From the NCBI RefSeq assembly GCF_001507595.1, contig NZ_LQBQ01000023.1, forward strand, positions 1-64,000: a stretch of 64,000 nucleotides of DNA. Reading direction: 5' to 3'. Origin of the DNA: Ruegeria marisrubri (GTDB lineage: Bacteria; Pseudomonadota; Alphaproteobacteria; Rhodobacterales; Rhodobacteraceae). The notes beneath the pieces are model-generated. The model worked only from the letters and a program-made list of their open reading frames with translations. It was not told the DNA's origin and searched no databases. Each line of letters starts with the position of its first letter. Within the stretch, counting starts at the first letter, position 1. Both the position numbers and the translations under genes were made by a program. Positions 6,218 to 41,263 of the stretch are shown here, one piece after another.

Positions 6218-6220
6218 AGC

Positions 6221-11686: not shown

Positions 11687-11693
11687 ATCGAAA

Positions 11694-11716
11694 GGCGGGG
11701 GCTTCAAGCCCTCGCC
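11694..11716 (+). terminator. Hairpin after the small peptide gene
   Basis: GGCGGGGGC, loop TTCAA, GCCCTCGCC: a 9-base stem with one G-T pair, followed by ACTTTCTC. The T tract is weak, so it may be an intrinsic terminator or an mRNA-stabilising structure. A second GC hairpin with arms GGGCGG and CCGCCC lies at about 11,465-11,483 before an A8 run. Between these and 11,795 I see no further gene. Confidence 0.45.
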
Positions 11717-11794
11717 ACTTTCTCAAGGCCGGTTTTGGCTTCCTGCAGGGACCGACAGAGCATCTACTCCGACTTCGTGGACGGTCTCGGTTTC

Positions 11795-12646: not shown

Positions 12647-12655
12647 ATGACTTGA

Positions 12656-12668
12656 TTACACGGTGTAA
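12656..12668. promoter_or_regulatory. Palindrome in the divergent tnsA promoter region
   Basis: TTACAC-G-GTGTAA, arms perfect, with a further GTGTAA at 12673-12678. It sits in the 76-base gap between the PD-(D/E)XK-like gene and tnsA. A dimeric repressor site is a reasonable reading, possibly for the helix-turn-helix of the adjacent minus-strand protein. I cannot exclude that it belongs to the transposon end. Confidence 0.4.
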
Positions 12669-12722
12669 TGATGTGTAAAGTCCCGCCATATCCAAACACC
12701 CTCCCCAACATCATTGAGACCT

Positions 12723-16347: not shown

Positions 16348-18124
16348 CGGCAGATGGCGACTGGTTGACCCTGAGCAGGACGAGAGCCTGAACGGATATC
16401 TTCACAGGCTGGCCGCGGCCAACGGGTTTCCCGAGACGGCCGAGTTCATCGCCTGCTTCGGGCTTCGATATGGACGCCAGATGATGGAACGGATCGAAGA
16501 TCTGGCCCGAGAACTCGGCCAAGATCTCTCCCTGATGCAGAACCTGGCGCCGAGGGCAAGGCCAGAGGACATCCGGCTCGAATGGCATTTTCACAGGACG
16601 AATATCGCTCCCGTTTGTCCGGATTGCATCGCAAATGGCCATGTGCATGATCGGGCTTGGCAGCATGTATTTGTAACCGCCTGTCCTGCCCACGGCACGC
16701 GCCTCATCGAAACCTGCGACCGGTGCCAAGAACCGCTTCGCCCGTTGACGGGTTCCTTCGATAGCTGCTCCTGTGGATGGCCATATCGGTCGTCTTATCG
16801 TCACGGGGCGACCGAGTGGGAACTGCAGATCAGCAAAGTGCTTTGCCGTTCTGACCAGTCTGAAACCGTCCTTTTTGAGCGCACACCGGCGCGGATTGCG
16901 GCCTTCCTGCAATTTCTCGGAAGTCACGCGAAGTCACACCAAACGGGAAAGCCGGGGAAAACGCCCCTCCCAAAAACCGTGGGGTCTGCAGCCGCCTTTC
17001 TGGCGCCTGTCGGTGAAATGCTGACCCGGTTCCCGGAAGGGTTCGATGACCACATTCGGGAACGGTTCGAGACCGCCCCGCCCGAAGCGACCACGATCCC
17101 GATGGCGCTCGGAAAATGGTATCAGCGCCTCATGTCATTCAGAGAAGCGGAGTTCAGGACGTTTCAGGAACGTGTGCCAATCGTAGCGAGATCTTTTCCG
17201 GTCCTGAGCGGAGAAAACTGCGATGATGGAGATTGGCTATCTGTGAAAGCCGCGGCAAGCTTGATCGGTGTTGGTGTGACACGCCTCACCAAGGCCATTG
17301 ATGATGGAAAGCTTCGCGCCAGGACTTCAACTTCCCAATCAGGCCATCGCCAATACCTGGTTTCACGCGAGGTTGCGAATCGTGCGGCCGGGGTGCGTAG
17401 CGATACGATCGGATCAACCGAGCTTCGCGCGATCTGGGGGATCTCCAAAGCACAACTTCACCTGCTCGACGAGGCCGGCGTTCTCGATAAAATCACGGCC
17501 GGCGACGGATATGGAGTCGCCGACGGAAAATTCTCCAAATCCCGAGCGGAAGAGGTGGCTTCGGCCCTGCGCATTTGCCTCTCTGAGCCGACAGGTGACA
17601 TAATCAGGTTTGGCGAAATCAACCTGCGCAAAACAACTGATCGCATGGCGGTCGCGCAGGTGTTCCGGGCGATCTTTGATGGTATCCTAAATCCGATCTA
17701 TGCGCCGGAATCCGCGCGTTTGAACGACTTCGCATTCTGCAAAAGGGAAGTCGAACATGCGATGGCGACCAGTTCGAAACCTCTCGGCATGACGATCGAG
17801 GAAGTCGCAAGCATCCTCGGACAGAAGCCTCAATGCGTCGGCTGGTGGGCCAAAACTGGCCTGCTGAAGTCTACTCAGGCTCCGCATGCAGGGAAGGAGC
17901 GGCGGGTGGTATCCCGAGAAGCCCTTTCCGCGTTTCAGGCCGAGTTCATACCGGTTTCAATGCTGGCCAGACGCACCGGCCGTAGTTCGCGCAAGATCTT
18001 GAAAACTCTGAAGACACGCGGGATCGAGACACACGGTTCGTTTGCCGAAGGCAATACCACAAGAGGGCACCTTGTGAGGGTAGGGGATCTGTTGGATGCA
18101 TTATTCGAGCCACAAGCTCGCTGA
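16340..18124 (+). CDS. tniQ: TniQ/TnsD-like target selection protein
   Basis: 594 residues. The TniQ domain starts at once (residues 8-170) with ESLNGYLHRLAAANGF and zinc-binding Cys/His pairs: CPDC, CPAH, CDRC and CSCG. After it come at least three excisionase/MerR-like helix-turn-helix segments: WLSVKAAASLIGVGVTRL, STELRAIWGISKAQLHL and MTIEEVASILGQKPQCVGWW. Such a chain of DNA-binding modules suggests recognition of a specific attachment site, as TnsD does. No CRISPR array or cas gene is present, so RNA-guided targeting is not indicated. It ends the operon; about 250 bases follow to the next gene. Confidence 0.85.
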   Translation: MRNGRWRLVDPEQDESLNGYLHRLAAANGFPETAEFIACFGLRYGRQMMERIEDLARELGQDLSLMQNLAPRARPEDIRLEWHFHRTNIAPVCPDCIANGHVHDRAWQHVFVTACPAHGTRLIETCDRCQEPLRPLTGSFDSCSCGWPYRSSYRHGATEWELQISKVLCRSDQSETVLFERTPARIAAFLQFLGSHAKSHQTGKPGKTPLPKTVGSAAAFLAPVGEMLTRFPEGFDDHIRERFETAPPEATTIPMALGKWYQRLMSFREAEFRTFQERVPIVARSFPVLSGENCDDGDWLSVKAAASLIGVGVTRLTKAIDDGKLRARTSTSQSGHRQYLVSREVANRAAGVRSDTIGSTELRAIWGISKAQLHLLDEAGVLDKITAGDGYGVADGKFSKSRAEEVASALRICLSEPTGDIIRFGEINLRKTTDRMAVAQVFRAIFDGILNPIYAPESARLNDFAFCKREVEHAMATSSKPLGMTIEEVASILGQKPQCVGWWAKTGLLKSTQAPHAGKERRVVSREALSAFQAEFIPVSMLARRTGRSSRKILKTLKTRGIETHGSFAEGNTTRGHLVRVGDLLDALFEPQAR

Positions 18125-18370: not shown

Positions 18371-20740
18371 TCAGGCGTCGTCCTTGGCACTGCTGCGCGT
18401 AAAGCTTTCCAGATCGACCAGAAGATTGGGGTTGGTGCCCTTGCCTTCCAACTCTTTGCAGACGTCGTTCAACACCTTCACATAGCGTTCGAGATGCGAT
18501 TTTCCGTCCACCTTTCTGGCCAGATCGTCTGCCAGAGTTCGGGTGGCAGCCAGCAGCCGGTCGGCGGTTTCGTCGCGGCCGGCGACCAGCGCCCAAGGCT
18601 CATTCAATCGCCAGCGCAGCAATCCCACCAGAAGATAGGGGCCATAGGAATAGCGCGTGGTGAAATCGCGGCCCACTGCGTCGTGCACCTTGGCTTCGGC
18701 GATGTCGGCGAGTTGTTCCACCTCGTCCCGCGTCAACAACATGGGCGCGGTTTCGGTGCGCGACAGCAGGAAGGCGGCGCAGGCCATCTGATCCTTTTTC
18801 CAGCCGTCTTCGGGCAGGCTGAACAGGTGATCGAAGGCGCGCCGTTGGTCCCGTTCGTCGCGGGCCGTGCGCCCGACCCCCTGCAACAGAAGCGTGCGGG
18901 ACTGGTGGTGTGCAAAGAACACATGGCGTCCGTGCCCCGCCTCGAGCGCATCCAGCATGGCCGGAACCACCCATTCGGGACATCTGGCAAACAGCCAGGT
19001 CAGGAATTTCAGCGAATGGTTGTCGCGGCTACCGCCTCCGTCCAGCCGGGCCCGCACATCCGCCTCGGCCAGTTCGGTCGCCCGGTCCAGCAGCTGCCGC
19101 CCCTCGTCCGGCAGATCGTCGGGCAGCTCGCCGTCGCTCGAGACCGCATAGCGGCCTTCGGGCCGGTTCGACAGTTTGCTGGCCAGCAGGTTCCAGTCGG
19201 GCCACAGCGCGGGCACCTCCTGCTGCAGCAGTTCCAGCAGACCGGGACGGTTCCGGCGCGGATACCAGTTGTCGGTGCCGCAGGGCAGGACCAGCCGGTG
19301 CGGGATGGTGGGCATCTCGGGGGTCAGACTGTCGATCAGCTCCGGCCAGCTCTGGCTCAGCTCTTCGGCGCTGTCCCAATCCACCACCACCGGCCCGGAA
19401 AAGGCCGGCGACATCAGGGTCAGCCGTGCGGCCCCGGCGGCGGGGGTCTGCTGGACGTGCAACTCGACCCGCTCGGCCGAGGTCTGAGGCACCGGCAGCC
19501 TCACCTCGGCACGGCGCGGGGCAGGTGCGGTTTCCTTCTTCAGATGCACCTTGATTTCGGACGTGCCCGGTTGCAGCCCCAGAACCGCCGGTCGGGTGCT
19601 GCGATAGGGTTGGCCGGCCGGCAGCAGCGCGTCCTTGGGGATCAGGTCGTAATTCTTCGCCGTGTCGCCATCCTGGACGATGGTCGAGATCTGCGGAAGA
19701 AAGTCGAAATAGACCGGTTGGTTGGCGGACAGGCGGCGGGCGGCCTCGAGCGCCCCCAGCGCGACCGCATCGGGCGCAAGCGCGTAGATGTCGCGCCCCG
19801 CCGCCGCAACGAGCGCTTCGTGGATCTGCCGACGGATCGCGCCCCGCGTCGGCGTTTCGAACAGGATCAGATCGCAGCCCTGCACGCTTTGGGCCACGCT
19901 GTCGGGAATGGCGCAGGGCGCGGGGCGGAAATCCGGGGGCGGCACGATCAGCTCCCAGCTGGCGTTCCATTTCCGCAACGGTTCGGGCGGACAGTCGAAG
20001 CCCAGGGCCAGCCTGTGCGGCAGATCCGAGGCGATCAAGTGATCCGCGCGATCGGGGTTGGCGCAGCAGGCCCGCAGGGCGGTGACGGCCTGATCCAGCA
20101 GCGGTTTCAGGCCAAGGCCGCAAGGGTGCAGCCGGCCCGTGTCGCGGCGTTCGGGCGCGATCAGCGCGCCGTGCCGCAGGCGCAGGGTCTGCGTGACGAA
20201 GCCGCCCGCATCATGGCCGATGATGCCGATGTTGCGCACGTCGGACCAGCCGATCCGATCCAGCCGTTGCAGGGCCGCCAACACCGCCAGAACCGGTCGC
20301 CAGACCAGAACCGTGCGCCCCGGCCGCAACTGGCGCAGGGCCTTCAGCAGGGCCTCTTGACGGTGTTCGTCCAGATCCGGCAGATCGGGGATGGCCAGCG
20401 CGACCGTGGCCTTGCGGGCACCCGCCATCGCCTTCAGCGCGGCGGCGATCGCATCACTCTGCGACGCGGGGTCGGTCAGAATATCGCTCACCCGGAGGCG
20501 CGGTTGCGTCCCGATGTCGCCCCAGCCGCCGCCGCGGCCATGCGGAGCGCGCGCCGCCTGCATGCCACCGATCAGATCGGTTTCGGCACCGGAGTCCTTC
20601 AGCCGCACGACCACGCCGCCCGCGCCGCCATTCACGACCTGGTCCCTGTCTTCGACGGGCTCCTGCCCCGGAATTTCCAGCCAGTTCCGGGCGGCGAAGT
20701 CGCTCCAGCCGTTCAGATCATAGCCGACCAGACGTTTCAT
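18371..20740 (-). CDS. Hsp70/actin-like ATPase protein
   Basis: 789 residues. The nucleotide-binding fold is readable in order: phosphate-1 motif LVGYDLNG (5-11, compare GIDLGT), the VALAIPDLPDLDEHR segment (about 113-127, compare VPAxFxxxxR of Hsp70) followed by VWRPVLAVLAAL (compare EPTAAAL), phosphate-2 IIGHDAGGF (about 173-181), the DLILFETPTRGAIRRQI region (290-306, equivalent of the adenosine loop) and a DAVALGALEAARR helix (324-336). The catalytic residues are diverged, so ATP hydrolysis is uncertain. The C-terminal 400 residues are unfamiliar. It is the last gene of a five-gene operon and overlaps its neighbour by ATGA. RNA-binding Hsp70 homologues are a described part of coiled-coil nuclease tandem (CoCoNuT) systems, which is the likeliest context. 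Confidence 0.65.
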   Translation of the reverse strand: MKRLVGYDLNGWSDFAARNWLEIPGQEPVEDRDQVVNGGAGGVVVRLKDSGAETDLIGGMQAARAPHGRGGGWGDIGTQPRLRVSDILTDPASQSDAIAAALKAMAGARKATVALAIPDLPDLDEHRQEALLKALRQLRPGRTVLVWRPVLAVLAALQRLDRIGWSDVRNIGIIGHDAGGFVTQTLRLRHGALIAPERRDTGRLHPCGLGLKPLLDQAVTALRACCANPDRADHLIASDLPHRLALGFDCPPEPLRKWNASWELIVPPPDFRPAPCAIPDSVAQSVQGCDLILFETPTRGAIRRQIHEALVAAAGRDIYALAPDAVALGALEAARRLSANQPVYFDFLPQISTIVQDGDTAKNYDLIPKDALLPAGQPYRSTRPAVLGLQPGTSEIKVHLKKETAPAPRRAEVRLPVPQTSAERVELHVQQTPAAGAARLTLMSPAFSGPVVVDWDSAEELSQSWPELIDSLTPEMPTIPHRLVLPCGTDNWYPRRNRPGLLELLQQEVPALWPDWNLLASKLSNRPEGRYAVSSDGELPDDLPDEGRQLLDRATELAEADVRARLDGGGSRDNHSLKFLTWLFARCPEWVVPAMLDALEAGHGRHVFFAHHQSRTLLLQGVGRTARDERDQRRAFDHLFSLPEDGWKKDQMACAAFLLSRTETAPMLLTRDEVEQLADIAEAKVHDAVGRDFTTRYSYGPYLLVGLLRWRLNEPWALVAGRDETADRLLAATRTLADDLARKVDGKSHLERYVKVLNDVCKELEGKGTNPNLLVDLESFTRSSAKDDA

Positions 20741-22236
20741 GCGGCCTCCGCCGTGAACAGAGAGCGGACGAAACCCGCCAGCGCCTGCTTACCCTGCCGC
20801 AGCGCCGCGCCGCGCGCATCGAAGACGATGCCGCGGACCCGGCTGCCGCCGCTGGTGGTCTCGTGGCTGTCGAAGGTCGCATCGGCCGGGGCAAGGATCA
20901 CCCCCTCGCGCATCACCTCATGGGTGGCGTGGCGGCGCAGCATCTCGATCAAGGTTGCCGCCTGCTGCGTTTCGGTGCGCAGATCCATCGGTTCAAAGCT
21001 GTGCGGCGTCCAGACCGGCACCCGTCGTTCGATTGCGTCCGAATTCAGATCGGTCACCCGCAGCCAGACATGCGCCCGCGCGGCGAACTGGATGCGGGAA
21101 ACCCGTTCAGGGCGGGCCTGGACCTCGACGATCAGGCCGCTGTCGCGCAGCCAGAACACCGCCAGAGGCCGGTCATGCAGGAACCGGCGCCCCTGGATGG
21201 CCTCGTCCAGCCAGATCAGAGGGGCCTGCGCCAGAAGCTGGGCCTCGTCCAGACCGTGCAGGGCCAGCGTGACCGCCAGAACGCAGAAATCGGTCCAGCT
21301 CTGGGCCTGCCACGCCCACAGCTCGTCCTCGGCCTTGTTCTGCCGCAGCAGTTTGTCCCAGGCTTGGCGGATCGCGCGATAGGCGCGGTCCTCCATCAGC
21401 ACGTAATTGTCGGTCACGTCCGGGTCCGCCACGCCGACATTCAGCTCGCGCAGCTGGCGCGAAAGGCGGCGGCACAGGCGCTGATAGGATTCGACATTGC
21501 GATAGCGCTGACTGCTCTGAGCCGTCTTGTGTTCGCGCAGCCATTGCCTTGCAAACCGCTCGGCCAGCCGCAGATAGGCGTGGAACACGCGGTTCTCGAG
21601 CGTGTTGAAGTTCTCGTGCCGGGCAATCGCAAGAACCCGCTGGTCGGCGCCGGCCCGTTCGGCGATGCTGCGGCCCGGCTGGCGCACCATCCACAGCATC
21701 GAGGCCCGGTCCATTTCCTGCACCCGGTCCAGCGGCACCATCTCGCGGTTGCGGCGCAGCACCCGGCGAATGCGTGATTCCAGTTGCAGAACATGGGGCC
21801 GGGTCTGCTGCGACTGGCGCACGATCTCGGCCATGCGCGGATCGGCTTCGTTTTCGGCCCGGTCCCACGCCGCCTGCAGGCGCGGCCACAGGTTTTCGGG
21901 GTCGTCCAGCGCGCCCTCGACCTCGTGGATGCGCGCCAGCACCCGGTGCATCCGCGCCGAAGCGGCAAGGGCCACCCTTTCGTCCTCGGTGCGCGGCTCG
22001 AGCCCGATCTTGGGGCGCGCGGGCAGGCCGGTGATCTGGCACGGGGCATTTGACCGGCCCGTCTTGGGATAAGGGTACAGGCGCAGCTCGGCCCCGTCGC
22101 GCGCCAGAAGAACCGCATGCCGGGACTGGGCGCCGTGGCTGCCCGAAGCCTCGCCCAGCAGACAGTCCGACGGACCGAGCACCGCCGCCGCGGGGTCCTC
22201 GGTGCGGTGCGACCAGGGCCTACGGATCAGCTTCAT
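20737..22236 (-). CDS. DUF2357-like protein, McrC-like partner of the AAA+ protein
   Basis: 499 residues, Arg-rich. The central NFNTLENRVFHAYLRL segment (about 200-216) matches the signature of DUF2357 proteins, which accompany McrB-like AAA+ GTPases and often carry a McrC-related PD-(D/E)XK nuclease. Here the only nuclease-like strand I find is DSGLIVEVQA (about 372-381), an E-x-Q rather than E-x-K, so catalysis is doubtful. Start and stop each overlap the neighbours by ATGA, so it is made in fixed ratio with the AAA+ and Hsp70-like proteins. Inference: a structural or nuclease subunit that binds the AAA+ ring. Confidence 0.6.
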   Translation of the reverse strand: MKLIRRPWSHRTEDPAAAVLGPSDCLLGEASGSHGAQSRHAVLLARDGAELRLYPYPKTGRSNAPCQITGLPARPKIGLEPRTEDERVALAASARMHRVLARIHEVEGALDDPENLWPRLQAAWDRAENEADPRMAEIVRQSQQTRPHVLQLESRIRRVLRRNREMVPLDRVQEMDRASMLWMVRQPGRSIAERAGADQRVLAIARHENFNTLENRVFHAYLRLAERFARQWLREHKTAQSSQRYRNVESYQRLCRRLSRQLRELNVGVADPDVTDNYVLMEDRAYRAIRQAWDKLLRQNKAEDELWAWQAQSWTDFCVLAVTLALHGLDEAQLLAQAPLIWLDEAIQGRRFLHDRPLAVFWLRDSGLIVEVQARPERVSRIQFAARAHVWLRVTDLNSDAIERRVPVWTPHSFEPMDLRTETQQAATLIEMLRRHATHEVMREGVILAPADATFDSHETTSGGSRVRGIVFDARGAALRQGKQALAGFVRSLFTAEAA

Positions 22237-24233
22237 CCGCGCGCCACCCCGCGCCAGACGAACTGTCCGGTCTCGTCCTCGGCGTGGCGGACGGACTCGC
22301 GGATCGCCTGAGCCAGATCGGGGTCGCCCAGATCCGCCTCGACATAGCCGGCGAGGTTGTCCAGCGGTCCGGTCAGGTTTTCCACCTCGACGCCGCGCAG
22401 CTTGGGCAGCAGCCGCATTTCGACCTGATCGGCCAGCGCGGCCTGAAGGTCGCGGTGGCCGTTGTCCTCGGGGTAGTTGGCGGCGTAGGCCATGATCGCC
22501 CGCCCCAGCCTGTGTCCGAAGGGGCGACCCAGTGCTGTCATGTGGCCCACCATCTTTTCGACGTGGTCTTCAACCTTGGGACGGTCGGACCCCAGCGTGT
22601 CGATGTCACGCACCCAGGCGCGCCACTGGCGGCGGGTCAGGGCCCGGGTTTCGACCGGCGTGCCCTGGGTCTGCCCGGCTTTGATCGTGCGTGGCGCCGC
22701 AAAGCGCAGCACGTTGGCCCGGTCGACCACCTTGTCCGACAGCGACTGGGTGCTTTCATCCTCGTTCATGGTGCCGGCGAACAGCACGTTGTAGCCAGGG
22801 AATATCCGCGGCGCCTGCCCATCCGGCATGGGAATGTCCAGGTTCAGCTCGGCATCCTTTCGGGCTTCGGCGCGGTCGGTCTCGTCGATGCCGGGGCGGC
22901 TTTCCAAGCGGCTGAGGAAGTCCGAGAAGTAATATTCGACCCGCGCCAGGTTCATCTCGTCCAGCAGCACCAGCAGCATCCGGTCGTCAAAGCCGCCATC
23001 CGCCGGACCATTCCATTCATCCATGTAATACAGCGCCTGCGCCAGATCGGTGGGCCGGTATTTGCCTTCGATATAGTTGTAGAACCCCATCAGATCCTGC
23101 GGGCTGTCCCATCGCGGCTGAACCGGGACCTGCAGGAACCCGATCCCCATCGCCTGCGCATAGCGGCGCGGCAGCTGGCTTTTGCCGGTGCCCGAAATCC
23201 CCGCCAGAACCGCCATCTGAGTGGTCTCGTTCACCTTCATCGCGGTGTGATAGGCGCGGATCACCCGGCGGTGATAGTCCAGCCCCAGCACCTTCATGTG
23301 CACGGAAACGCGGTGCAGCGCCTCGGCTTCGGTCTCGCGCGCGTGTTCGTCCCAGCCCTGCATGTCGCGCAGCACCGGCGGCAGCGACCTGAGCTCGACC
23401 AGCGGGTCGGCCTGCTTGCCGCCCCCGCCCGCCGCAAGCCCGGCCTTGTCCTTCATCGCCTCGATCTGGGCCAGCAGTTCTGCGCGCTGTGCGTCCATCC
23501 GGGTCAGTTCGGTCTGGGCCGAGGCCAGCCGGGCCGCCTCGTCGGTATGGGCCGCGCGGATCTGTTCCAGCCGCTCCTCTGCGGCGCGGGTACCATCTTC
23601 GGCCTCGTCGCGGCGGGCGCGGAAGGTCTCGACCTCGCCCTGCAGGCGGGCGGCATCGCGCTCGAACCGGTCGATGCGCTCGCGCAGCTCGGCCTCGCGG
23701 GCCTTCAGGTTTTGCAGATCGGACAGCTCGCCGCGCAGATCGGCCACCGCCTGTTCCAGCTGGGCGCGGCTCTGTTCCAGCTGCTCCGTCTGGGCGACCA
23801 GCCGTTCCGCCTTCTGAAGGCGCGCTTCGACCTGTTCCAGCTCGGCGGCCTTTTCGGTCAGATCGCGCGTGACCTGCGCCAGCGCGGTCTGTGCCTCGTC
23901 GGTTTCCTGGCGCAGGGCCAGGATTTCCTGCCGGCGGTCTTCAAGCTGGTTCCATTCGGCCTGCAACTCGGCCTTTTGCCGAACCAGCGCATCCACTTCG
24001 GCCTGTTTGAACGCGTAGTCCGCTGCGGTTTCGCGAAGCTTTTGTACTTCGGCCTCAAGATCGTCGCGCAGGTGTTTTTTGCCCGCGATCTGCGCTTCCA
24101 ACTCGCCCAAGGAGGCCATCGGTCCCTTGATCGTGATGGCATGGTCGGCCCGCCAGGCCACCATCCCCATGATCGCCGCCAGGACGAACAGAACGAATGC
24201 CGCAAGCAGCGCCGAGATCAGCAGCGTTCCCAT
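22233..24233 (-). CDS. Membrane-anchored coiled-coil McrB-like AAA+ NTPase
   Basis: 666 residues in three parts. Residues 2-26 are a transmembrane helix (LLISALLAAFVLFVLAAIMG). Residues 40-262 are an almost unbroken coiled coil, Glu/Arg/Leu/Gln rich. Residues 310-640 are a McrB-type AAA+ domain: Walker A AGISGTGKSQ (344-353), Walker B LLVLLDEMNLARVE (420-433), and GTMNEDESTQSLSDKVVDRA (487-506), the McrB-family sensor region that replaces NTADRS. McrB proteins use GTP and drive a McrC partner; which nucleotide this one uses is unknown. It shares one base with the preceding gene (TGATG). The coiled coil fused to a McrB motor is the hallmark for which CoCoNuT systems were named. Confidence 0.72.
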   Translation of the reverse strand: MGTLLISALLAAFVLFVLAAIMGMVAWRADHAITIKGPMASLGELEAQIAGKKHLRDDLEAEVQKLRETAADYAFKQAEVDALVRQKAELQAEWNQLEDRRQEILALRQETDEAQTALAQVTRDLTEKAAELEQVEARLQKAERLVAQTEQLEQSRAQLEQAVADLRGELSDLQNLKAREAELRERIDRFERDAARLQGEVETFRARRDEAEDGTRAAEERLEQIRAAHTDEAARLASAQTELTRMDAQRAELLAQIEAMKDKAGLAAGGGGKQADPLVELRSLPPVLRDMQGWDEHARETEAEALHRVSVHMKVLGLDYHRRVIRAYHTAMKVNETTQMAVLAGISGTGKSQLPRRYAQAMGIGFLQVPVQPRWDSPQDLMGFYNYIEGKYRPTDLAQALYYMDEWNGPADGGFDDRMLLVLLDEMNLARVEYYFSDFLSRLESRPGIDETDRAEARKDAELNLDIPMPDGQAPRIFPGYNVLFAGTMNEDESTQSLSDKVVDRANVLRFAAPRTIKAGQTQGTPVETRALTRRQWRAWVRDIDTLGSDRPKVEDHVEKMVGHMTALGRPFGHRLGRAIMAYAANYPEDNGHRDLQAALADQVEMRLLPKLRGVEVENLTGPLDNLAGYVEADLGDPDLAQAIRESVRHAEDETGQFVWRGVARG

Positions 24234-25831
24234 CAGTTGGCCTCCTGCGTCTGTGCTTCGTCGGATTGTCCGGCGTCATTCTGCGGGTCGGGCGCGGCCG
24301 GCGCCTCGACCATCGTCCGCATCACCGCAAGCCGCCCGGTGATCGTCGCCAGTTCCTTGCGCGCGTCGGCTGCTGCGGTCTCGGCGGCTTTTTTCTGTGC
24401 CCGCAGATCGTTCACCGCGACCTCAAGTTCGATTTTCTCGGCAGACAGCCGTTCTTGCTCGGTCTTCAACGTCGCGGTTTCTGCCGTCAGCGCCGAAAGG
24501 CTGGCCATCAGATCCGCCTTCTGTTTTTCCAGACCGTCCCGATCCTGTTCCAACTGCGCAATGGCCTCGGCAATCCGGGCGCGGCGGTCCTGCTCGGCCT
24601 TCGTTCTGGCCAGAGCCTGGTTCAGCGCCTGTTCGGCTGCGTCCTTGTCCGTGGTCACCGTCGCCAGCGCGGTCTGTTTTTCGGTAATCTTTCGGTCCAG
24701 ATCCGCAAGCCGGTTTTGGGCCTGCTGCAGGTCAGTTTCCAGCTTTTGGGCCTGCTGCTGCCAGTCCGAGGCATCCGCCTGAGCCGAGGCCAACTCCGCC
24801 TGCGCTTGCAGCAGGTTCTGACGTGCGGTGGTGATTTCGGTTTCCAGTCGGCGCTTTTCCTCCCGGCGCGCGTTGATCTGCTGATTGACCTCGTCCAACC
24901 GCGTTTCGGCGTCCTGAACCTTGGTTTCGATCCCTTTCAGGCGGGCTTCTTGATCCTGAAGTTCGCCAACCCGGTCTTCGGCAAGCTCGATATCGCGGCG
25001 CAGCCCGTCCAACTCGGCCGTCCGTTCGCGGACTTCGTTCTGCGCGGACTGAAGGTCCGAGCGCGCCTGTTCGATCTGAGGCTGAAGCCGATCGAGATCC
25101 TCCTGCGCCTGCTTCGCGCGGCGCTCGGCGGCAACCGCTTGGGCGCTCTGATCGGCACTTTCCTTTTGAACGGTCTTCAAGTCACGTTCGGCGGCGGCCA
25201 GTTCGTCTTTCGTCTTCTGAAGATCGGCCGCGACCCGGTCGCGCTCTTGCTTGAGGCGATTCAGGTCGTCCACCTGATCCTGAAGCTGGCCACGGCGGGA
25301 TTCCAGATCGCGGGCTTCGTTCCGGGCGTTGGTTTTGCGGGTCTCAAGCTGATCGATCTCACGCTGCAGTGCCGCTTGTTGGTCGCGCATCCCGTCCAGA
25401 AGGCTTTGAGCCTTGTCGATTTCAGACCGGACCGCGTCGCGGGTAGCGATCTTCTGCTGGGCATCGGTTCGGTCGGCCTCCAACGCCTTCAGGGCGGTCT
25501 GTGCCTCTTGGACCTTGGCGTTCAGGCTCTGCAGCTGTCCGATCAGGGTTTCGGCCTGCACCCGCTCGGCCTGCAACCCCGCCAAATCGGCCTTCGCGCC
25601 CTCGATTTCCGCACCAAGTGCGGCAAGCGTCGCCTGCCCGTCGGCGATGTCGCGCTCGATCCGGGCGCGGTCGTTGCGGATCTCGCCGAACTCCTGCTCC
25701 AGACCGATCACGAGGTACACGAAAGCGGCCAGAACCGCCGCCGTGATGACGGCGCTGCCGATGGCCAGCCAGGCAAACAGATGCGACTTGCGCACGGTGT
25801 CAGTCGTTGAGGTCTCGTTCGACGAGGTCAA
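24233..25831 (-). CDS. Membrane-anchored long coiled-coil protein
   Basis: 532 residues. A transmembrane helix at about 18-42 (LFAWLAIGSAVITAAVLAAF) is followed by coiled coil almost to the end, with heptads of Leu/Ala and many Glu, Arg and Gln. The last 30 residues are acidic and Pro/Ala-rich. There is no enzymatic domain. With the next gene it makes a pair of membrane-tethered coiled coils of the same topology, which probably dimerise or form a shared rod. The start overlaps the helicase gene by 32 bases and the stop overlaps the AAA+ gene. Long coiled coils also occur in tail-fibre and cytoskeletal proteins, but this operon makes a defence role more likely. Confidence 0.65.
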   Translation of the reverse strand: MTSSNETSTTDTVRKSHLFAWLAIGSAVITAAVLAAFVYLVIGLEQEFGEIRNDRARIERDIADGQATLAALGAEIEGAKADLAGLQAERVQAETLIGQLQSLNAKVQEAQTALKALEADRTDAQQKIATRDAVRSEIDKAQSLLDGMRDQQAALQREIDQLETRKTNARNEARDLESRRGQLQDQVDDLNRLKQERDRVAADLQKTKDELAAAERDLKTVQKESADQSAQAVAAERRAKQAQEDLDRLQPQIEQARSDLQSAQNEVRERTAELDGLRRDIELAEDRVGELQDQEARLKGIETKVQDAETRLDEVNQQINARREEKRRLETEITTARQNLLQAQAELASAQADASDWQQQAQKLETDLQQAQNRLADLDRKITEKQTALATVTTDKDAAEQALNQALARTKAEQDRRARIAEAIAQLEQDRDGLEKQKADLMASLSALTAETATLKTEQERLSAEKIELEVAVNDLRAQKKAAETAAADARKELATITGRLAVMRTMVEAPAAPDPQNDAGQSDEAQTQEAN

Positions 25832-28800
25832 GGCACCCCTCCATGTCCTGTTTCAACTCATCCACCCAGAACCGCCGCACCTTCCAGCCCAGTGCGCGCA
25901 TCTGGTGATCACGCCAGTGATCGTCGATCTTGCGGTTGCCGTCGGCATCCTGGTGCCAGCGGCGACCGTCGACTTCGAGGTCCAGCTTGACCCCGTTCGC
26001 CCCGAACAGGGCAAAGTCCAGCCGGCGGCCTGCGATTTCGTATTGCGGCTGCGGATCGAGGCCGCGCGCCTTCAGCGCGTGGAACACGATGCGTTCCCAG
26101 TCACTTTCGAACACGCCCTCGCCGGAACGGCCACGCGGTTCGGTCGCGCGCGCGGCGAGGCTTTGCAGCTGCCTGATCTTCCCCGAACGCGCGTAATCCA
26201 GATCGCCGAACACATGGGCCACCGCCCGCGCTCGGCTGATCGCCACGTTCATGCGCCGCCATTCGCGCACCAAGAACGTCACCGCAGAGGGCGCGGCCCC
26301 TTCATGCACGGTGGGCGAAAACAGGATCAGGTCGCGTTCCTGGCCCTGAAACCCGTCAACCGTGCCGACGCGCAGATCGGCCCTGGTCCAGCAAGTGTCC
26401 GGCAGCGCCTGTCGCAACGCCTGGGTCAATGCGTGCACCTGCGGTCGGAACGGGGCAATCACCCCGACCGTTCCCATGTAGGCCTGAGTCACCAGAAGAT
26501 CCTGAACCTCGCGCGTGATCGCGGCAACTTCGGCAAGGTTCACGTTCTGTGCCGTGGATGTCGCCCGGCCCGGGCCGGGCACATGCGTCCACGCCAGGCC
26601 CGGCTTGCGCCCCTTGGGCAGTTTCAGCGCCTCCAGATCCGCCGCGACCCGCAGCTTACCGCCGTAGAACTGCGTGTTGATGTAGTCCACGATCCCTTCG
26701 GCCGAGCGATACTGATCGCGTAGCATGACCGCCGGAACCTCCGGCGTGCTGCGGGCCAGGTCGAACAGGCTCTTGCGGCCCTGCGAGAACCGGCCGGTTC
26801 CCGAATCCGGCAGCCCGTTGGCGGCCATCAGGTTGCGATCCTGGGAAAGCCCGATCTGGGAAATGAAGGCCAGCTGCCGATCGTCGCCCACGATCACCGC
26901 CCGCTTTGCCCGCGCCAGCAGGGGCAGGGCCGAAGCGATGTCGCACTGGCTGGACTCGTCAAAGATCACCAGATCGAACAGGCCCTCGTACAAGGGAATG
27001 CGCCGGGGCGTACCCAGAACCGAGGCCAGCCACAGCGGGCGGTGATCCAGCACCGTCTGGGCCAGATCGCGGGACATGGCGCCGCCTCCGTGCAGGGCCA
27101 GGTCGTCATGCTGGTTCGACAGATCGATGCGCTGACCCTCGGTCAGGGCCGCCCGTGCGACCAAGGTCTGGCGCATGACGGTCTTGGCGAGGGGTTCGAT
27201 CTGTTGGGTCAGATCCACCGGGTCCGGTGGTGGGGCCAGCCGGGCCAGTTCGGCCCGCAGCGCCCGGATTTTGGCCTCGATCGCGGCGCGGCCCGAGGGC
27301 GGGGGAGCGTCCGCGGCGCCGGTCGGGTCAAAGCGGCCCGGCAGCAGCCAGCGCAGCAGACGGGCCAAAAGGCCCCGCGCCTCGGGGCCTGTGGCCGGTT
27401 CCGGTTCGGGGTCGTCCGCGCGCAGGTCGAGGGTTTCGATCAGATCGGCCAGTTGCAGGTTCAGCACGCGCCGGGCCTCGACCGTATCGAGCGCTTGCAG
27501 GCGTCGGCCCGCCAGGTCGGTCAACTGATCCGCCAGTGCCGGATCGTGAAACCCGGGCGCCCTGCCGGGGTCGTTGACCAGCTGCGCGACCACATCTGTC
27601 ATGCCCTGATCGATCTCGCGCGCGGGGTCCAGCGTGCGCACCATGAACGGAACGTCAGGCGCGATTTCGGACAGGCGTTGTTCGACCGCGTCCAGCGCCT
27701 GGTGGTTCTTCGAGGCCACCATCACCGACCCGCCCCGCAGCAGGGTCGTTGCGGCCATGGCGACGATGGCCTGGCTTTTGCCGGTGCCCGGCGGCCCTGT
27801 CACCACCGAAAGCGGATGCGCGGCGGCATTTGCCACGGCGCGGATCTGTTCGTGGTTCAGCGGTCCGACATTGATCGGCGGATCCGCGGGGATCTCCCCG
27901 TCATGTTTCAGCCCCAGCAAGGGGCCCAGGGCGGTGCGGGCGATCTTCTCGGGCGCCCAGGTGGCGATCTGGTCGAGGTCACGCACCGCGCCCGCCGTGA
28001 ATGAACTTTCGGTGGGCAGAAACAGCCCCATCGCGTCAAAGATGCCCCCATCCGCCGGGTCGAGGCTGGTGGCGAAGCGGCGGCCCGTGATCTTGCCGCG
28101 GATCGATTTCGCCGCGGCCTCGCGCAGCCGCAGCAGGAAATCATCGCGCGACAGCCCGGCCCCGCCCTGACCGGCAAAGATGTCGCGCAGGGCCCCGGCC
28201 GTCCAGGCGGTTCCGGTTGCGGCGGCCCGGATCCAGTCGGGGTTGACCATGACGTCATCGACCGCGATCCGGATCACCAACTGTTCGCCGCTGCGCTCCC
28301 ACGTGGCCGCGATCAGGCCGACGGGCCGGATCGCGGGCGCGCCGCTTTTGCGGCCGATCGAAATGGGCCAGCCGATGGCCAGCGCCCGGTCATTCGCCTC
28401 GCGGCGGGACAGAGCCTCGCGGAAACTGTCGGGCAGATGCTCCAACGTGACCCGGATGATGCCCGTTTCGCCGTCTTCGGGGAACGGGTCGCCCGCGCCG
28501 CAGATCAGCTGATACGCGGTTCCGTGCCGGTCATCGGCCTGTGTCAGCGCGCCGCGCGGATCGCTTTGCAGCGCCGCACGATAGTATCGCAGCAAGGCAA
28601 TCGGATTGATCTGTGCCGTGTCCGCGCCGTCCTCGGATCCGGCGGTTTCCCGGTCCGCCTGCCGCGAGAAACCCGCCGGAACCGCCTGAAGCACCGCGCC
28701 CGGATCCGCGCCGGCATCCAGCCCTGCCCCGGTTTCGTGACGCCCGGCCGCCACCACCGTCCGGCTGACCGCCCGCCACTTGTTGTCATGACCAAGGGTC

Positions 28801-28964
28801 ACGACGCCCTGCTTCTGCAAGGCGAGCAGTTCGGCCAGGATCTGCTCGCGCCGGGCGGCGCTGAACTCAACATCCAACAGCGCGTACAATTCGTCGGTCG
28901 TGCGACCGCGGGGGAAGGCTTCGACTGTGCGCAGCAGGGTGCTCAAAGGCGACGCTCCATGCAC
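25800..28964 (-). CDS. SF1 (UPF1/Dna2-like) helicase with C-terminal DUF559/Vsr-like nuclease
   Basis: 1054 residues, GTG start at 28964. After about 370 residues of unfamiliar N-terminus comes an SF1B helicase: Walker A VVTGPPGTGKSQAI (388-401), DEAD-equivalent LVIFDESSQCDIASAL, VIVGDDRQLAF, and the motif V/VI run VGTVDGFQGQERDLILFS with MNVAISRARAVAHVF. The last 100 residues form a Vsr/DUF559-type endonuclease: SDWERIVFHAL, then RRLDFALF and LDLEVDGRRWH with Asp and Glu in place. UPF1-like helicases work on RNA or DNA, and a Vsr-like domain nicks DNA. It heads the five-gene operon. The Walker B motif and the helicase order are clear; the substrate is not. Confidence 0.82.
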   Translation of the reverse strand: MHGASPLSTLLRTVEAFPRGRTTDELYALLDVEFSAARREQILAELLALQKQGVVTLGHDNKWRAVSRTVVAAGRHETGAGLDAGADPGAVLQAVPAGFSRQADRETAGSEDGADTAQINPIALLRYYRAALQSDPRGALTQADDRHGTAYQLICGAGDPFPEDGETGIIRVTLEHLPDSFREALSRREANDRALAIGWPISIGRKSGAPAIRPVGLIAATWERSGEQLVIRIAVDDVMVNPDWIRAAATGTAWTAGALRDIFAGQGGAGLSRDDFLLRLREAAAKSIRGKITGRRFATSLDPADGGIFDAMGLFLPTESSFTAGAVRDLDQIATWAPEKIARTALGPLLGLKHDGEIPADPPINVGPLNHEQIRAVANAAAHPLSVVTGPPGTGKSQAIVAMAATTLLRGGSVMVASKNHQALDAVEQRLSEIAPDVPFMVRTLDPAREIDQGMTDVVAQLVNDPGRAPGFHDPALADQLTDLAGRRLQALDTVEARRVLNLQLADLIETLDLRADDPEPEPATGPEARGLLARLLRWLLPGRFDPTGAADAPPPSGRAAIEAKIRALRAELARLAPPPDPVDLTQQIEPLAKTVMRQTLVARAALTEGQRIDLSNQHDDLALHGGGAMSRDLAQTVLDHRPLWLASVLGTPRRIPLYEGLFDLVIFDESSQCDIASALPLLARAKRAVIVGDDRQLAFISQIGLSQDRNLMAANGLPDSGTGRFSQGRKSLFDLARSTPEVPAVMLRDQYRSAEGIVDYINTQFYGGKLRVAADLEALKLPKGRKPGLAWTHVPGPGRATSTAQNVNLAEVAAITREVQDLLVTQAYMGTVGVIAPFRPQVHALTQALRQALPDTCWTRADLRVGTVDGFQGQERDLILFSPTVHEGAAPSAVTFLVREWRRMNVAISRARAVAHVFGDLDYARSGKIRQLQSLAARATEPRGRSGEGVFESDWERIVFHALKARGLDPQPQYEIAGRRLDFALFGANGVKLDLEVDGRRWHQDADGNRKIDDHWRDHQMRALGWKVRRFWVDELKQDMEGCLDLVERDLND

Positions 28965-29213: not shown

Positions 29214-29831
29214 TCAGGCCTTTTGGGGCGGGATGCACAGCTTGTCCTTGATGGGGCCGAAAACTTTTTCAGGGGCATTGCCTTTGATCAACGCGCGCAA
29301 AGGATTCACGAGGTATCCATCGACGGCTTCAGGTCTGTCGAGTGCTTCGAGCTGCACCGCGTAGAACCAGCTGCGGTCGTCGTCGCAGTAGACCCAGAGA
29401 CTGCCTCTCGGGTTGCCGTCTTCACTTTCGCCCGCGCCCTCGGGGTTGGCAGTGTCGAATTCCCACCGGTCGTCCGATTTCGGGGACGGGCAATACCCGA
29501 CCAGAACCTTGGCTTGCCGCCCGTACTCCCAATCGTCGCCGTGACCCGGATCGGAGGTCAGTTGAATGGCCAGAGTAATGTAGCCCAGCCCCTTCTTTTT
29601 TTCCTTGTCCTTCCCGACGTTCAGGCGCTCGTTCACCTTGTAATAGGCATTCCAGACGGGTCTGACCCAATCCCCGCCTTCATAGGTGTTGCTGTCAAAT
29701 TCGATGATCAGACCACCTTTACCGGTTTCGTCAAGTTCAACCGTGTCGAACGCGTCATACAGCTTTTCCAGGTTCACCTGCACATCCAGCAGGTTTCGGG
29801 TCGATTGCCAGAGGGCTTCGCTTGCACTCAT
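29214..29831 (-). CDS. Hypothetical acidic protein of the defence island
   Basis: About 205 residues from ATG 29831. Soluble, acidic, rich in Asp, Gly and Trp. Strand-like segments GLIIEFDSNTYEGGDWV and GLGYITLAIQLTSD alternate with polar loops, and the acidic stretch ANPEGAGESEDGNP lies before WVYCDDDRSWFYAVQLEAL. I do not recognise the family. It stands alone: 230 bases separate it from the Gre-like gene upstream and 250 from the helicase gene downstream. All three point the same way, so it could be the first gene of the helicase operon. Confidence 0.5.
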   Translation of the reverse strand: MSASEALWQSTRNLLDVQVNLEKLYDAFDTVELDETGKGGLIIEFDSNTYEGGDWVRPVWNAYYKVNERLNVGKDKEKKKGLGYITLAIQLTSDPGHGDDWEYGRQAKVLVGYCPSPKSDDRWEFDTANPEGAGESEDGNPRGSLWVYCDDDRSWFYAVQLEALDRPEAVDGYLVNPLRALIKGNAPEKVFGPIKDKLCIPPQKA

Positions 29832-30061
29832 CAATTCATTTCTTGTTGAAACGTGGTTTTGTCGTGGCCAACCTGTGCCGCGTCATTGCGCATCGCAGCC
29901 GGTGCCATCGTTGAAGAAAAACGTGACGGCAGGCGGCATGGCCAGGTCCAGCCATTTGCCCAGCACAGCGCCCTGACCTGTGCCACTCAGGAAGGTTGCT
30001 GCCACGTCGGCTCAGGCTTTCAGGCCCGGGACGGTATCCGATTACATCGAGACTACTTCAG

Positions 30062-30652
30062 TTAATCAAAATGTGACATTTCGACAAAAAAACCCTTGCT
30101 GACCTTTGTGATCTGCACAATTTGGTATCTGACCCGCCCATCGAGCTCTACGAAATCGCCAACTCGCGCTCCGAGCAGATCTGCCGAAATCGAGTGGTCA
30201 GGGTGACGAAACGTCACTTTTTGCGTTGGGTCTGTCGAAGGAGTTTCCGATACGCTTACGAAGAGAACGCCATCTTTGCCCGGCTTCTTCAAACATACGA
30301 TGTCATCGAAATCTACCGTTGTTGCGCGCCGTTCCGCTTCAAGTTCAGCTTCCAAAGTTTCAACACGCAATCTGAGAGCCACCAGCTGTCGCTTTGTTTG
30401 CTCAAGAGCTTGTTTCGTCTGGTCGTGACTTCGCATCTGCCTGAGCAGACGCAGAATGGTTTCATCCTCGCTGCTTCTGGACTGAAGTGAAGCGATCCGT
30501 TTGGAAACTCTTTCCTGCAATTCTAACGCATGCGGCCGCGAGCGGTGCTTTAGTTCTTCCGACAACTCCAGCAGTTTTTTCAGGTTCCCGAAATGCTGTC
30601 GGTATTCGTATTCCAATTCCTGCGTGGAATAATGAAAGTAGGTCCGGTTCAT
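30062..30652 (-). CDS. Coiled-coil protein with Gre-factor-like C-terminal domain
   Basis: About 196 residues from ATG 30652; the frame extends to 30742 with no better start. It opens with YFHYSTQELEYEYRQHF, followed by a coiled coil (to about residue 120) and a small beta domain. The end, ISADLLGARVGDFVELDGRV then RYQIVQITKV, follows the pattern of the GreA/GreB C-terminal domain (ALLGxxVGD...I..I). Gre factors enter the RNA polymerase channel with a coiled coil and rescue stalled transcription; here the coiled coil lacks an obvious acidic tip. A role at RNA polymerase is inferred. An OB-fold protein is the alternative. Confidence 0.5.
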   Translation of the reverse strand: MNRTYFHYSTQELEYEYRQHFGNLKKLLELSEELKHRSRPHALELQERVSKRIASLQSRSSEDETILRLLRQMRSHDQTKQALEQTKRQLVALRLRVETLEAELEAERRATTVDFDDIVCLKKPGKDGVLFVSVSETPSTDPTQKVTFRHPDHSISADLLGARVGDFVELDGRVRYQIVQITKVSKGFFVEMSHFD

Positions 30653-30886
30653 TTGTCTCAGCTCAATAATTGTGCAGCCCTGCTGGCAGCCTCGGTTAAG
30701 CGAAGATTTCTTCTCGCAACGAGGCAGATGCGTTCCGAGCAACGTCGAAACAAATAGATCCTTGCGCGGGTGTAATTTTTCACCGTTGATTGTCGTTTTT
30801 TAGAGCTCTCATTGCAATCACTGCATGAAACATCGTCGTCCTACTCAATCAGTTTTCTGCCAATTCAGCGCGCTGCGCGCCATTCG

Positions 30887-31411
30887 TCAATCGGTGTTCG
30901 GCCCCTGTGTGCCGACATCTCGTCGCAGCTCGACCTTGCGCGGTGCCGGGTCGGTCAGGCGGGTCAGCAGGGCCGCCAGATAGCGGTGCCCATCCGCCCA
31001 GGACCCCTCGGTCCAGCGCGCGTCATCGGGGGTCAGGCGGCCGCTGCGGATCTCGGCCATCAACAGGCCCGGAAGCGTGTCATAGGCCGCGACCGGCAGC
31101 GCCCGGGGCGGCAGCTTGTCCAGGAACCAGCGCACCGTGTCGGCGGCCTGCCCGAACCGGCAGGTCATCAGGAAGCGTTCATTGGACATCAGCAGGTTGC
31201 GCCGCAGGATCGGCACATCGTCCTGCGTGACCTTCAGGCCCGACAGAACCGCCGCGACGGCGTGACGCTTGGCCGCCGTCAGGCCCCAGAACGCGGCGCT
31301 CCAATCGTCGGGGAACAGCTGATCCAGCCGCGCGGCCAGCGGCGCGCAGGCCGCGAAGGTGCCGGCCGCAAGGCGTCGGTTCAGGGTGTCGTCAAACAGT
31401 TTTTCAAGCAT
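30887..31411 (-). CDS. Hypothetical protein coupled to mcrC
   Basis: 174 residues, start overlapping the end of mcrC by eight bases. Mostly helical by composition (Ala, Leu, Arg), no signal peptide or membrane helix. Segments DRLFPDDWSAAFWGLTAAKRHAVAAV-like in the middle give it a compact helical look, but I recognise no domain. Coupling to mcrC suggests a small accessory subunit of the McrBC complex. It is the last gene of the six-gene operon; no convincing terminator follows. Confidence 0.5.
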   Translation of the reverse strand: MLEKLFDDTLNRRLAAGTFAACAPLAARLDQLFPDDWSAAFWGLTAAKRHAVAAVLSGLKVTQDDVPILRRNLLMSNERFLMTCRFGQAADTVRWFLDKLPPRALPVAAYDTLPGLLMAEIRSGRLTPDDARWTEGSWADGHRYLAALLTRLTDPAPRKVELRRDVGTQGPNTD

Positions 31412-41260: not shown

Positions 41261-41263
41261 CGC

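What the first reader, a model, noticed from the sequence alone, without database searches (positions are those of the whole stretch)
18371..28964. Five-gene coupled operon resembling a coiled-coil nuclease tandem (CoCoNuT) system in an alphaproteobacterium
Seen: an SF1 helicase with a Vsr/DUF559-like C-terminus, two membrane-anchored coiled-coil proteins (one fused to a McrB-like AAA+ motor), a DUF2357-like protein and an Hsp70-like ATPase, all overlapping by 1-32 bases. Established: CoCoNuTs are McrBC relatives with long coiled coils, tandem nucleases, UPF1-like helicases and RNA-binding Hsp70 homologues, often beside type I restriction genes. Inference: this is a CoCoNuT (probably the helicase/DUF2357-bearing type) or a sister group with a membrane anchor on both coiled coils.
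Basis: partly seen in the sequence, partly recalled or inferred. Interest (0 to 1): 0.88.

Follow-up and report, generated by a model that had tools for sequence, protein, structure and literature searches.

The report
Membrane-anchored Type III-B CoCoNuT operon
A five-gene bacterial operon, most likely an anti-virus system of an already described but untested kind, which seems to be fastened to the cell membrane by two of its proteins, something the main text of the paper describing this kind does not mention.

Summary
Five minus-strand genes (18371-28964) overlap by 32, 1, 4 and 4 bases: a UPF1-like helicase with a C-terminal Vsr/DUF559-type nuclease, two coiled-coil proteins with N-terminal hydrophobic helices (one fused to a McrB-like motor), a DUF2357 protein and a protein with an Hsp70 fold.

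This matches the published Type III-B CoCoNuT (PMC11090510: CnuH-Vsr, CnuA, CnuB, CnuC, CnuD). Tested and met: NxD GTPase motif, dead PD-(D/E)xK domain in CnuC, Hsp70 fold of CnuD, Vsr fusion. All five genes stay together in 14 of 14 CnuB-bearing loci with room on the contig; three more loci with room are CnuD-side remnants. A CnuB tree puts a cyanobacterial III-C next to the 16 III-B rows (moderate support).

Not found in the eLife main text or preprint: membrane anchors. An N-terminal hydrophobic helix is present in 16 of 16 CnuB and 14 of 14 CnuA with readable N-termini, and in 0 of 13 McrB-type comparators outside III-B/III-C (the one III-C has it). CnuB should face the cytoplasm; charges hint, not uniformly, that the CnuA coiled coil faces the periplasm. 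Function is untested.

The parts
25800..28964 (-). CnuH: UPF1-like SF1 helicase with 273 residues between Walker A and B and an intact C-terminal Vsr/DUF559-type PD-(D/E)xK nuclease; N-terminal ~65 residues possibly a winged helix
   Evidence: Walker A GPPGTGKS, DESSQ, RRLDF-x12-ExDG; for the N-terminus (weak)
24233..25831 (-). CnuA: N-terminal transmembrane-like helix (residues ~18-44) plus long coiled coil; TTG start lying inside cnuH
   Evidence: (SMC/Rad50/tropomyosin-type coiled-coil matches)
22233..24233 (-). CnuB: N-terminal transmembrane-like helix (residues 1-27), coiled coil (~40-263), McrB-like AAA+ GTPase with NxD motif (NED, 490-492)
20737..22236 (-). CnuC: DUF2357 McrC homologue whose C-terminal PD-(D/E)xK domain lacks the catalytic motif
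   Evidence: DUF2357; profile alignment to McrC and residue columns; fold matches
18371..20740 (-). CnuD: Hsp70-like NBD plus SBD-beta (about 85-460) followed by an all-helical, possibly HEAT-like C-terminus (545-780)

Best explanation
This is a Type III-B CoCoNuT, a predicted anti-phage Type IV-like restriction system (membership about 0.95). Proposed mechanism (about 0.45 for the chain as a whole): CnuB is tethered to the cytoplasmic side of the inner membrane by its N-terminal helix; its coiled coil holds the McrB-like GTPase ring off the membrane; CnuC plugs into the ring through DUF2357 and stimulates GTP hydrolysis but, its nuclease being dead, uses that domain to hold nucleic acid; CnuD (Hsp70-like) loads or senses the target, perhaps phage RNA or a ribosome-bound transcript; CnuH unwinds it and its Vsr domain, the only nuclease with an intact motif recognised in the operon, cuts it. 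CnuA is a second membrane-bound coiled-coil rod that organises or triggers the complex. Shown here: gene set, motifs, folds of CnuD and (weakly) CnuC, conservation, hydrophobic helices. Inferred: complex formation, target, order of events, defence role.
For: Gene-by-gene match to the III-B description. NxD motif GTMNEDEST in the 16 III-B rows of the tree. Tree of 26 AAA domains: 16 III-B rows on one side of a branch (100/99), the Synechocystis PLD-type (III-C) next to them (83/81), E. coli McrB and the window's own NxxD McrB apart (100/100). CnuD = DnaK fold. CnuC: DUF2357, profile match to ten McrC homologues E 3.7e-05, and no PD-x(8-25)-(D/E)xK motif in the last 200 residues of 16 of 16 III-B CnuC. 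Vsr motif intact in all 13 uninterrupted CnuH and in the 3' part of the IS21-split one in L031. Five genes together in 14 of 14 CnuB-bearing loci with room. Hydrophobic N-terminal helix: CnuB 16 of 16 (KD 2.29-3.23), CnuA 14 of 14 (1.78-2.45); none of 13 comparator McrB-type proteins above 1.31. Neighbourhood: Type I RM, canonical McrBC, TM0106/UPF1 helicase and SbcCD-like genes.
Against: No experiment on a Type III-B system appeared in the paper listings and passages I saw. RNA versus DNA as target is undecided: Vsr-type nucleases are best known on DNA (recall). The CnuC model is poor (mean pLDDT 52); its best fold match, McrC, has Z 7.5, within what models without a clear match reach according to that tool, and no Foldseek match was below 0.001. 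A first profile comparison with six sequences failed (E 0.92). The III-B/III-C join is only moderately supported and flagged for long branches. Three of 17 loci with room carry only CnuD-side remnants. CnuB and CnuH were not folded. Anchors rest on hydropathy, not on a trained topology predictor.
Confidence: 0.6

Rival explanations
1. Trans-envelope version: CnuB faces the cytoplasm but CnuA is inserted the other way (N-terminus inside, coiled coil in the periplasm), so the system senses phage entry or envelope damage across the inner membrane and CnuA does not pair with the CnuB coiled coil.
For: By K/R count in 15-residue flanks, 12 of 14 CnuA have more positive residues before the helix (N-in), while 16 of 16 CnuB have them only after it; by net charge all 14 CnuA lean N-in. 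The CnuA coiled coil evolves faster than the CnuB one in the same genomes: 28-31% against 67-69% identity in L004/L005, 84% against 96% in L003; whole-gene dN/dS 0.467 against 0.105.
Against: By K/R the window's own CnuA is at -1 and L003's at 0. The net-charge measure is not trustworthy: for CnuB, whose motor must be inside, it gives the expected sign in only 4 of 16 rows (7 zero, 5 opposite). In L007/L008 the two coils differ much less (22-24% against 33%). Rows are not independent, and the CnuA N-terminus overlaps the cnuH frame. The published proposal is that CnuA pairs with the other coiled coils.
Confidence: 0.25
2. Type III-B acts as an RNA-targeting abortive-infection system: CnuD and the dead CnuC domain bind phage or ribosomal RNA, and the Vsr domain cleaves RNA, shutting the cell down.
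For: This is the general CoCoNuT hypothesis of Bell et al. (abstract and sections 7 and 9 read); Hsp70-like CnuD confirmed here.
Against: No HEPN or other dedicated RNase was recognised in the five proteins; Vsr/DUF559 nucleases are usually DNA enzymes (recall); nothing here tests the substrate.
Confidence: 0.35
3. The hydrophobic N-termini are not anchors (for example they pack inside the coiled-coil assembly) and the system is soluble like other CoCoNuTs.
For: [quoted passage not shown] no topology predictor was available.
Against: 19-residue means of 1.8-3.2 close to the N-terminus in every III-B member with a readable N-terminus, against 1.31 or less in 13 comparators; K/R after the CnuB helix in 16 of 16 fits the positive-inside rule.
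Confidence: 0.1
4. Not a CoCoNuT but a CoCoPALM (the published relative whose McrB GTPase is fused to an FtsB-like transmembrane coiled coil) or another NxD lineage.
For: A transmembrane helix plus coiled coil on the GTPase is the CoCoPALM hallmark.
Against: CoCoPALMs are described with signal-peptidase-like pilus factors and coiled coils on both McrB and McrC, and the passage seen mentions no CnuH-Vsr or CnuD; none of the 30 window proteins scanned gave a signal peptidase hit. No CoCoPALM sequence was in the tree.
Confidence: 0.03
5. A housekeeping nucleic-acid or envelope maintenance operon, not defence.
For: No phage data; purifying selection on all five genes.
Against: Patchy: 11 of 394 family genomes, plasmid-borne copies, broken remnants (L006, L009), restriction genes around it.
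Confidence: 0.05

Closest known systems
Type III-B CoCoNuT (Bell et al. 2024, PMC11090510)
   Same: CnuH with C-terminal Vsr, separate coiled-coil CnuA, coiled-coil NxD CnuB, CnuC with dead PD-(D/E)xK, separate Hsp70-like CnuD; alphaproteobacterial; no TerY-P genes among the 30 window proteins scanned
   Different: The paper's main text does not mention N-terminal membrane helices on III-B CnuA and CnuB (all six 'membrane' places seen)
Type III-C CoCoNuT (reference used: Synechocystis pSYSX, L032, labelled by its PLD gene)
   Same: NxD CnuB with N-terminal hydrophobic helix (KD 2.39), DUF2357 CnuC
   Different: PLD nuclease gene instead of the Vsr fusion; only a weak helicase match in a 467-aa gene
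Type II/III-A CoCoNuT (L033, L034, L044, labelled by TerY-P genes)
   Same: UPF1-like helicase, NxD GTPase (GTMNQDETT) and DUF2357 gene in one array
   Different: TerY-P-type phosphatase/kinase genes, an extra gene between helicase and GTPase, cold-shock domain on CnuC in L033 (just under cut-off in L034; L044 not scanned), no N-terminal hydrophobic helix on CnuB
CoCoPALM (named in PMC11090510)
   Same: Transmembrane helix plus coiled coil attached to an NxD McrB GTPase
   Different: Described with pilus-type signal peptidases; the passage seen names no CnuH or CnuD
Canonical McrBC (E. coli K-12; also 31404-35359 in this window)
   Same: McrB-like motor and a McrC partner
   Different: NxxD motif; McrC with an intact nuclease; no helicase or Hsp70-like partner of its own (E. 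coli details partly recall)

Membership tests
CoCoNuT (all types) | McrB-like GTPase with NxD in place of NxxD | tested here: met
   GTMNEDEST in the window CnuB and the other 15 III-B rows; NxxD (GTMNTADRS) in the window's separate McrB
CoCoNuT (all types) | Long coiled coil with the GTPase | tested here: met
   Residues about 40-263 match SMC/Rad50-type coiled coils; no dedicated coiled-coil program was run
CoCoNuT (all types) | GTPase falls in the CoCoNuT branch of the McrB tree | tested here: inconclusive
   Groups with a III-C reference (83/81), away from NxxD McrB (100/100); but 26 of 30 rows used, one III-C row, no CoCoPALM, few published references
Type III-B CoCoNuT | UPF1-like SF1 helicase CnuH with Vsr nuclease fused at its C-terminus | tested here: met
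   AAA_11/AAA_12, MTES_1575, DUF559; catalytic motif intact
Type III-B CoCoNuT | Large helical insertion after Walker A in CnuH | tested here: inconclusive
   273 residues between K396 and D669 (numbering) leave room for it; whether they are helical was not folded
Type III-B CoCoNuT | N-terminal winged helix on CnuH resembling Sul7s | tested here: inconclusive
   Profile of residues 1-75 finds only 2mlg (Sulfolobus Stf76) at E 0.12
Type III-B CoCoNuT | OB-fold in CnuH | not tested
Type III-B CoCoNuT | Separate coiled-coil protein CnuA without other domains | tested here: met
   24233-25831; only coiled-coil matches, plus the N-terminal hydrophobic helix
Type III-B CoCoNuT | CnuC with DUF2357 and an inactivated PD-(D/E)xK domain | tested here: met
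   DUF2357 3e-05; profile match to McrC E 3.7e-05, probability 71%; in that alignment the D of PD falls on H (14) or N (2) and D-x-K on T/P-x-H in 16 of 16, and no PD-x(8-25)-(D/E)xK exists in the last 200 residues of any; fold match McrC 6hz4_N Z 7.5 over 306-491, modest
Type III-B CoCoNuT | Immunoglobulin-like N-terminal domain on CnuC | tested here: inconclusive
   Model has strands within residues 2-54 but with low confidence
Type III-B CoCoNuT | CnuD: Hsp70-like NBD/SBD encoded by a separate gene | tested here: met
   Foldseek DnaK E 1.1e-08; VIA Z 13.0, rmsd 7.0, 340 aligned
Type III-B CoCoNuT | HEAT-like repeats on CnuD | tested here: inconclusive
   Residues 545-780 all-helical; best match listed for that part 7mq8_LM Z 11.6 over 552-771, in the range that helical arrays reach by chance
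Type III-B CoCoNuT | Coiled coil in CnuD (said to be usual) | not tested
   No coiled-coil program was run on CnuD
Type III-B CoCoNuT | No TerY-P genes in the operon | tested here: met
   None among the 30 window proteins scanned with Pfam
CoCoPALM | Association with signal-peptidase-like pilus assembly factors | tested here: not met
   No such hit among the 30 window proteins scanned
Canonical McrBC | NxxD motif and active McrC nuclease | tested here: not met

The most novel reading that the evidence does not exclude
Type III-B CoCoNuTs are inner-membrane machines that span the envelope: CnuB places the GTPase/CnuC/CnuD/CnuH-Vsr assembly on the cytoplasmic face, while CnuA, inserted with opposite topology, puts a fast-evolving coiled-coil rod into the periplasm that detects phage genome entry or envelope disturbance and switches the nuclease on at the entry site. 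(Odds lowered from 0.25 to 0.2 on rechecking, because the net-charge measure that favoured it fails on CnuB.)
Probability: 0.2. Interest if true: 0.78.

Novelty: new member of a known kind. Interest (0 to 1): 0.45.

Why it matters
I saw no bench study of a Type III-B CoCoNuT in the paper listings and passages searched, and the published model treats its coiled coils as interaction modules. If both coiled-coil subunits are membrane proteins throughout the type, as the sequences suggest, a new question comes up beside which nucleic acid it cuts: why a McrBC-like motor sits at the membrane. That is directly testable by topology fusions and anchor deletions. The window gives a complete operon, with a second copy in Jhaorihella thermophila (L003; 86-97% protein identity).

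Tried and rejected
Sequence-only searches for CnuD failed in Pfam, PADLOC, NCBIfam and PDB; only the fold search identified it. The first CnuC-McrC profile comparison (six CnuC rows against one McrC) gave nothing (E 0.92); 16 rows against ten McrC homologues gave E 3.7e-05. On rechecking I dropped my own first reading of the dead active site (RPLAVFW...EVQ, residues 357-373): the profile alignment instead puts McrC's PD and DxK on residues 389 and 410-412; neither register keeps the motif. A single-sequence class search gave a weak second genome (G283, 86 residues, E 7e-05) that the profile search did not keep; I set it aside. Foldseek for CnuC had no match below 0.001; its four best are chains of McrBC entries (that they are McrC is recall). 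A first tree script stopped on a missing row name and was rerun; 4 of 30 proteins (L039, L042, L045, L046) were dropped because my pattern found no sensor motif in them. In the topology count rows cut at their start (CnuA of L026 and L029, CnuB of L023), the second piece of L026's broken CnuB, the III-C and TerY-P rows, and a 17-bit false CnuA match in L030 were left out.

I considered that the island is cargo of the adjacent Tn7-like element (TniA/TniB/TniQ, 13385-18124). No inverted repeats of score 15 or more were found between its left side (8500-13400) and four stretches to the right. Of 19 CoCoNuT-related loci only one, L028, holds a relative (a TniQ piece at its edge, 37% over 147 residues), though several contigs are short; so I do not claim it. 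Druantia I/II ('Type IV CoCoNuT', PMC12458937, passages seen) was set aside because that group is described with inactivated CnuB and YprA helicases. Passages of PMC12839542 had no DUF2357, McrC or Hsp70. CoCoPALM was set aside as above.

Full report
1. Observation. They lie on the minus strand at the start of contig C23 of a 4.0 Mb genome. Relatives found by CnuD are Jhaorihella, Tateyamaria, Shimia, Ruegeria, Gemmobacter, Rhodobacter and a Rhodobacteraceae MAG. Adjacent genes overlap by 32, 1, 4 and 4 nt. In 14 of 14 loci that hold CnuB and have room, all five genes are present in the same order and on one strand; cnuA begins with TTG inside cnuH with a 29-41 nt overlap in 14 of 14, by my choice of start. 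Those are the window, L003, L004, L005, L007, L008, L024, L025, L027, L028, L030, L031, L037 and L038; in L031 an IS21-family insertion splits cnuH. L023, L026 and L029 are cut by contig ends. Three further loci with room hold only CnuD-side remnants: L006 (pieces of CnuD), L009 (CnuD in two frames after a CnuC tail), and L036 (one CnuD frame after CnuC positions 331-496). So 14 of 17 loci with room are complete.

2. Anatomy. CnuH: AAA_12 (2.3e-33), AAA_11 (1.3e-15), C-terminal MTES_1575 (2.7e-12) and DUF559 (1.3e-05); the nuclease motif RRLDF-x12-ExDG (with small substitutions) is intact in the 13 uninterrupted sequences and in the 3' part of the split one. CnuB: coiled coil, then an AAA+ motor with Walker A GISGTGKS and sensor motif GTMNEDEST, i.e. 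NxD. CnuC: DUF2357; profile match to McrC E 3.7e-05. In that alignment McrC's PD falls on residues 388-389 and its DxK on 410-412; 16 of 16 III-B CnuC have A/S-H or A-N there and T-P-H or P-L-H at the second place, and none has a PD-x(8-25)-(D/E)xK motif in its last 200 residues. The C-terminal part of the model aligns best to McrC (6hz4_N, Z 7.5, residues 306-491), then to other PD-(D/E)xK enzymes, with unrelated folds further down. CnuD: no relatives in the family libraries, but the AlphaFold model (mean pLDDT 68; residues 1-145 below 50) matches DnaK (Foldseek 1.1e-08; VIA Z 13.0 over 88-456), with an all-helical C-terminus.

3. Identity. Section 9 and the Figure 4 legend of Bell et al. 2024 (PMC11090510; abstract, sections 7 and 9 in full, and passages) describe Type III-B by this set and say it is found primarily in Alphaproteobacteria. 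In a tree of 26 AAA domains the 16 III-B rows form one side of a branch (100/99), a Synechocystis PLD-type system is next (83/81), TerY-P-linked CoCoNuTs and four other NxD proteins come off an unresolved fork, and two NxxD McrBs are apart (100/100). Caveats: 4 of 30 proteins dropped, few references, long branches flagged, and III-B labels of the relatives are my reading of their gene content.

4. Distribution. Among 72,556 plasmid records, 4 hold a CnuD relative: two Rhizobium, one Sinorhizobium, one Jannaschia; the first three carry the five genes, with cnuH split in one, the fourth is a remnant. Patchiness, plasmid carriage and remnants fit a mobile defence module.

5. What is not in the published main text. 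N-terminal hydrophobic helices: CnuB 16 of 16 rows with a readable N-terminus (KD19 mean 2.29-3.23), CnuA 14 of 14 (1.78-2.45). Of 14 comparators, 13 reach 1.31 at most and the III-C CnuB has 2.39; of seven further genome loci, four gave a readable motor (maximum 1.32, one cut at its start) and three did not. The eLife main text (six places) and the preprint (four places) mention transmembrane parts only for CoCoPALM/FtsB, ShdA, a 4-TM neighbour and, in eLife, EssC-type ATPases, and say III-B CnuA has no recognisable domain besides the coiled coil. Supplementary files were not open to me.

6. Topology. CnuB has K/R only after the helix in 16 of 16, which puts the motor inside, as GTP requires. 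By the same K/R count 12 of 14 CnuA are N-in/C-out; the window's own is -1 and L003's 0. By net charge all 14 CnuA lean N-in, but that measure gives the expected sign for CnuB in only 4 of 16, so I give it little weight. The CnuA coil diverges faster than the CnuB coil (28-31% against 67-69% in L004/L005; 84% against 96% in L003; but 22-24% against 33% in L007/L008; dN/dS 0.467 against 0.105). A periplasmic CnuA rod is possible, not shown.

7. Mechanism. I commit to a membrane-tethered McrBC-like motor with a dead McrC nuclease, an Hsp70-like target binder, and CnuH-Vsr as effector. Shown: parts and conservation. Inferred: assembly, target and defence. Whether the target is RNA (the authors' view) or DNA is open.

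8. Verdict. The membrane anchoring is the point worth testing. On rechecking, the odds of the trans-envelope reading were lowered (rival 0.3 to 0.25, novel case 0.25 to 0.2) because of the net-charge result.

Noticed in passing
window 13385-18124 (+): Tn7/Tn5053-like transposition genes: Mu-transposase C-terminal protein, TniB and TniQ, 246 bp from the end of cnuD; no inverted repeats found to the right. Of 19 CoCoNuT-related loci only L028 has a relative, a TniQ piece at its edge.
   Followed up: partly
window 35340-43567 (-): TM0106-family RecB-like nuclease fused to a UPF1-like helicase, SbcC-like, SbcD-like and WYL genes. In Shimia abyssi (L005:15173-22108) the same four genes sit on the other side of the CoCoNuT operon (59-76% identity); a TM0106-family gene also follows a TerY-P-linked CoCoNuT in Caballeronia (L034). 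Possibly a recurrent partner module.
   Followed up: partly
window 29214-29834 (-): Small gene upstream of cnuH whose copy in L003 differs far more (60% identity over 197 codons, dS 0.54) than its neighbours (dS 0.10 for 30062-30742, 0.13 for cnuH): an allele swap or variable gene of unknown function.
   Followed up: partly
window 31404-35359 (-): A separate canonical McrBC (NxxD motif; McrBC Pfam 5.8e-66) upstream of the CoCoNuT on the same strand; its McrB carries a stretch (515-622) matching PADLOC PDC-S02.
   Followed up: no
window 1963-9213 (-): Type I RM genes hsdS, hsdM, hsdR with a NucS-type endonuclease gene between hsdS and hsdM (3696-4775; NucS_C 1.5e-07, PDC-S02 3.7e-44).
   Followed up: no
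L026:3190-7068: CnuC and CnuD read as one 1292-aa frame, as in Type III-A CnuCD; the contig is short and its CnuB is broken, so an assembly error is possible.
   Followed up: no
window from about 47921: Island edge: a same-genus genome (G427), which had no CnuC match, is collinear from window 47921 onward (71-81% protein identity) and no window ORF of 120 aa or more to the left matched its adjacent 18 kb at E 1e-20.
   Followed up: partly
L036 (Jannaschia plasmid) 12525-15352: CnuD without the rest of the system, preceded by a 170-aa C-terminal piece of CnuC: remnant or stand-alone use.
   Followed up: no
window CnuC residues 409-412 and relatives: The dead nuclease site of CnuC keeps a nearly invariant W-T-P-H (W and H in 16 of 16, T and P in 15 of 16), which suggests a new role for that pocket.
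   Followed up: no
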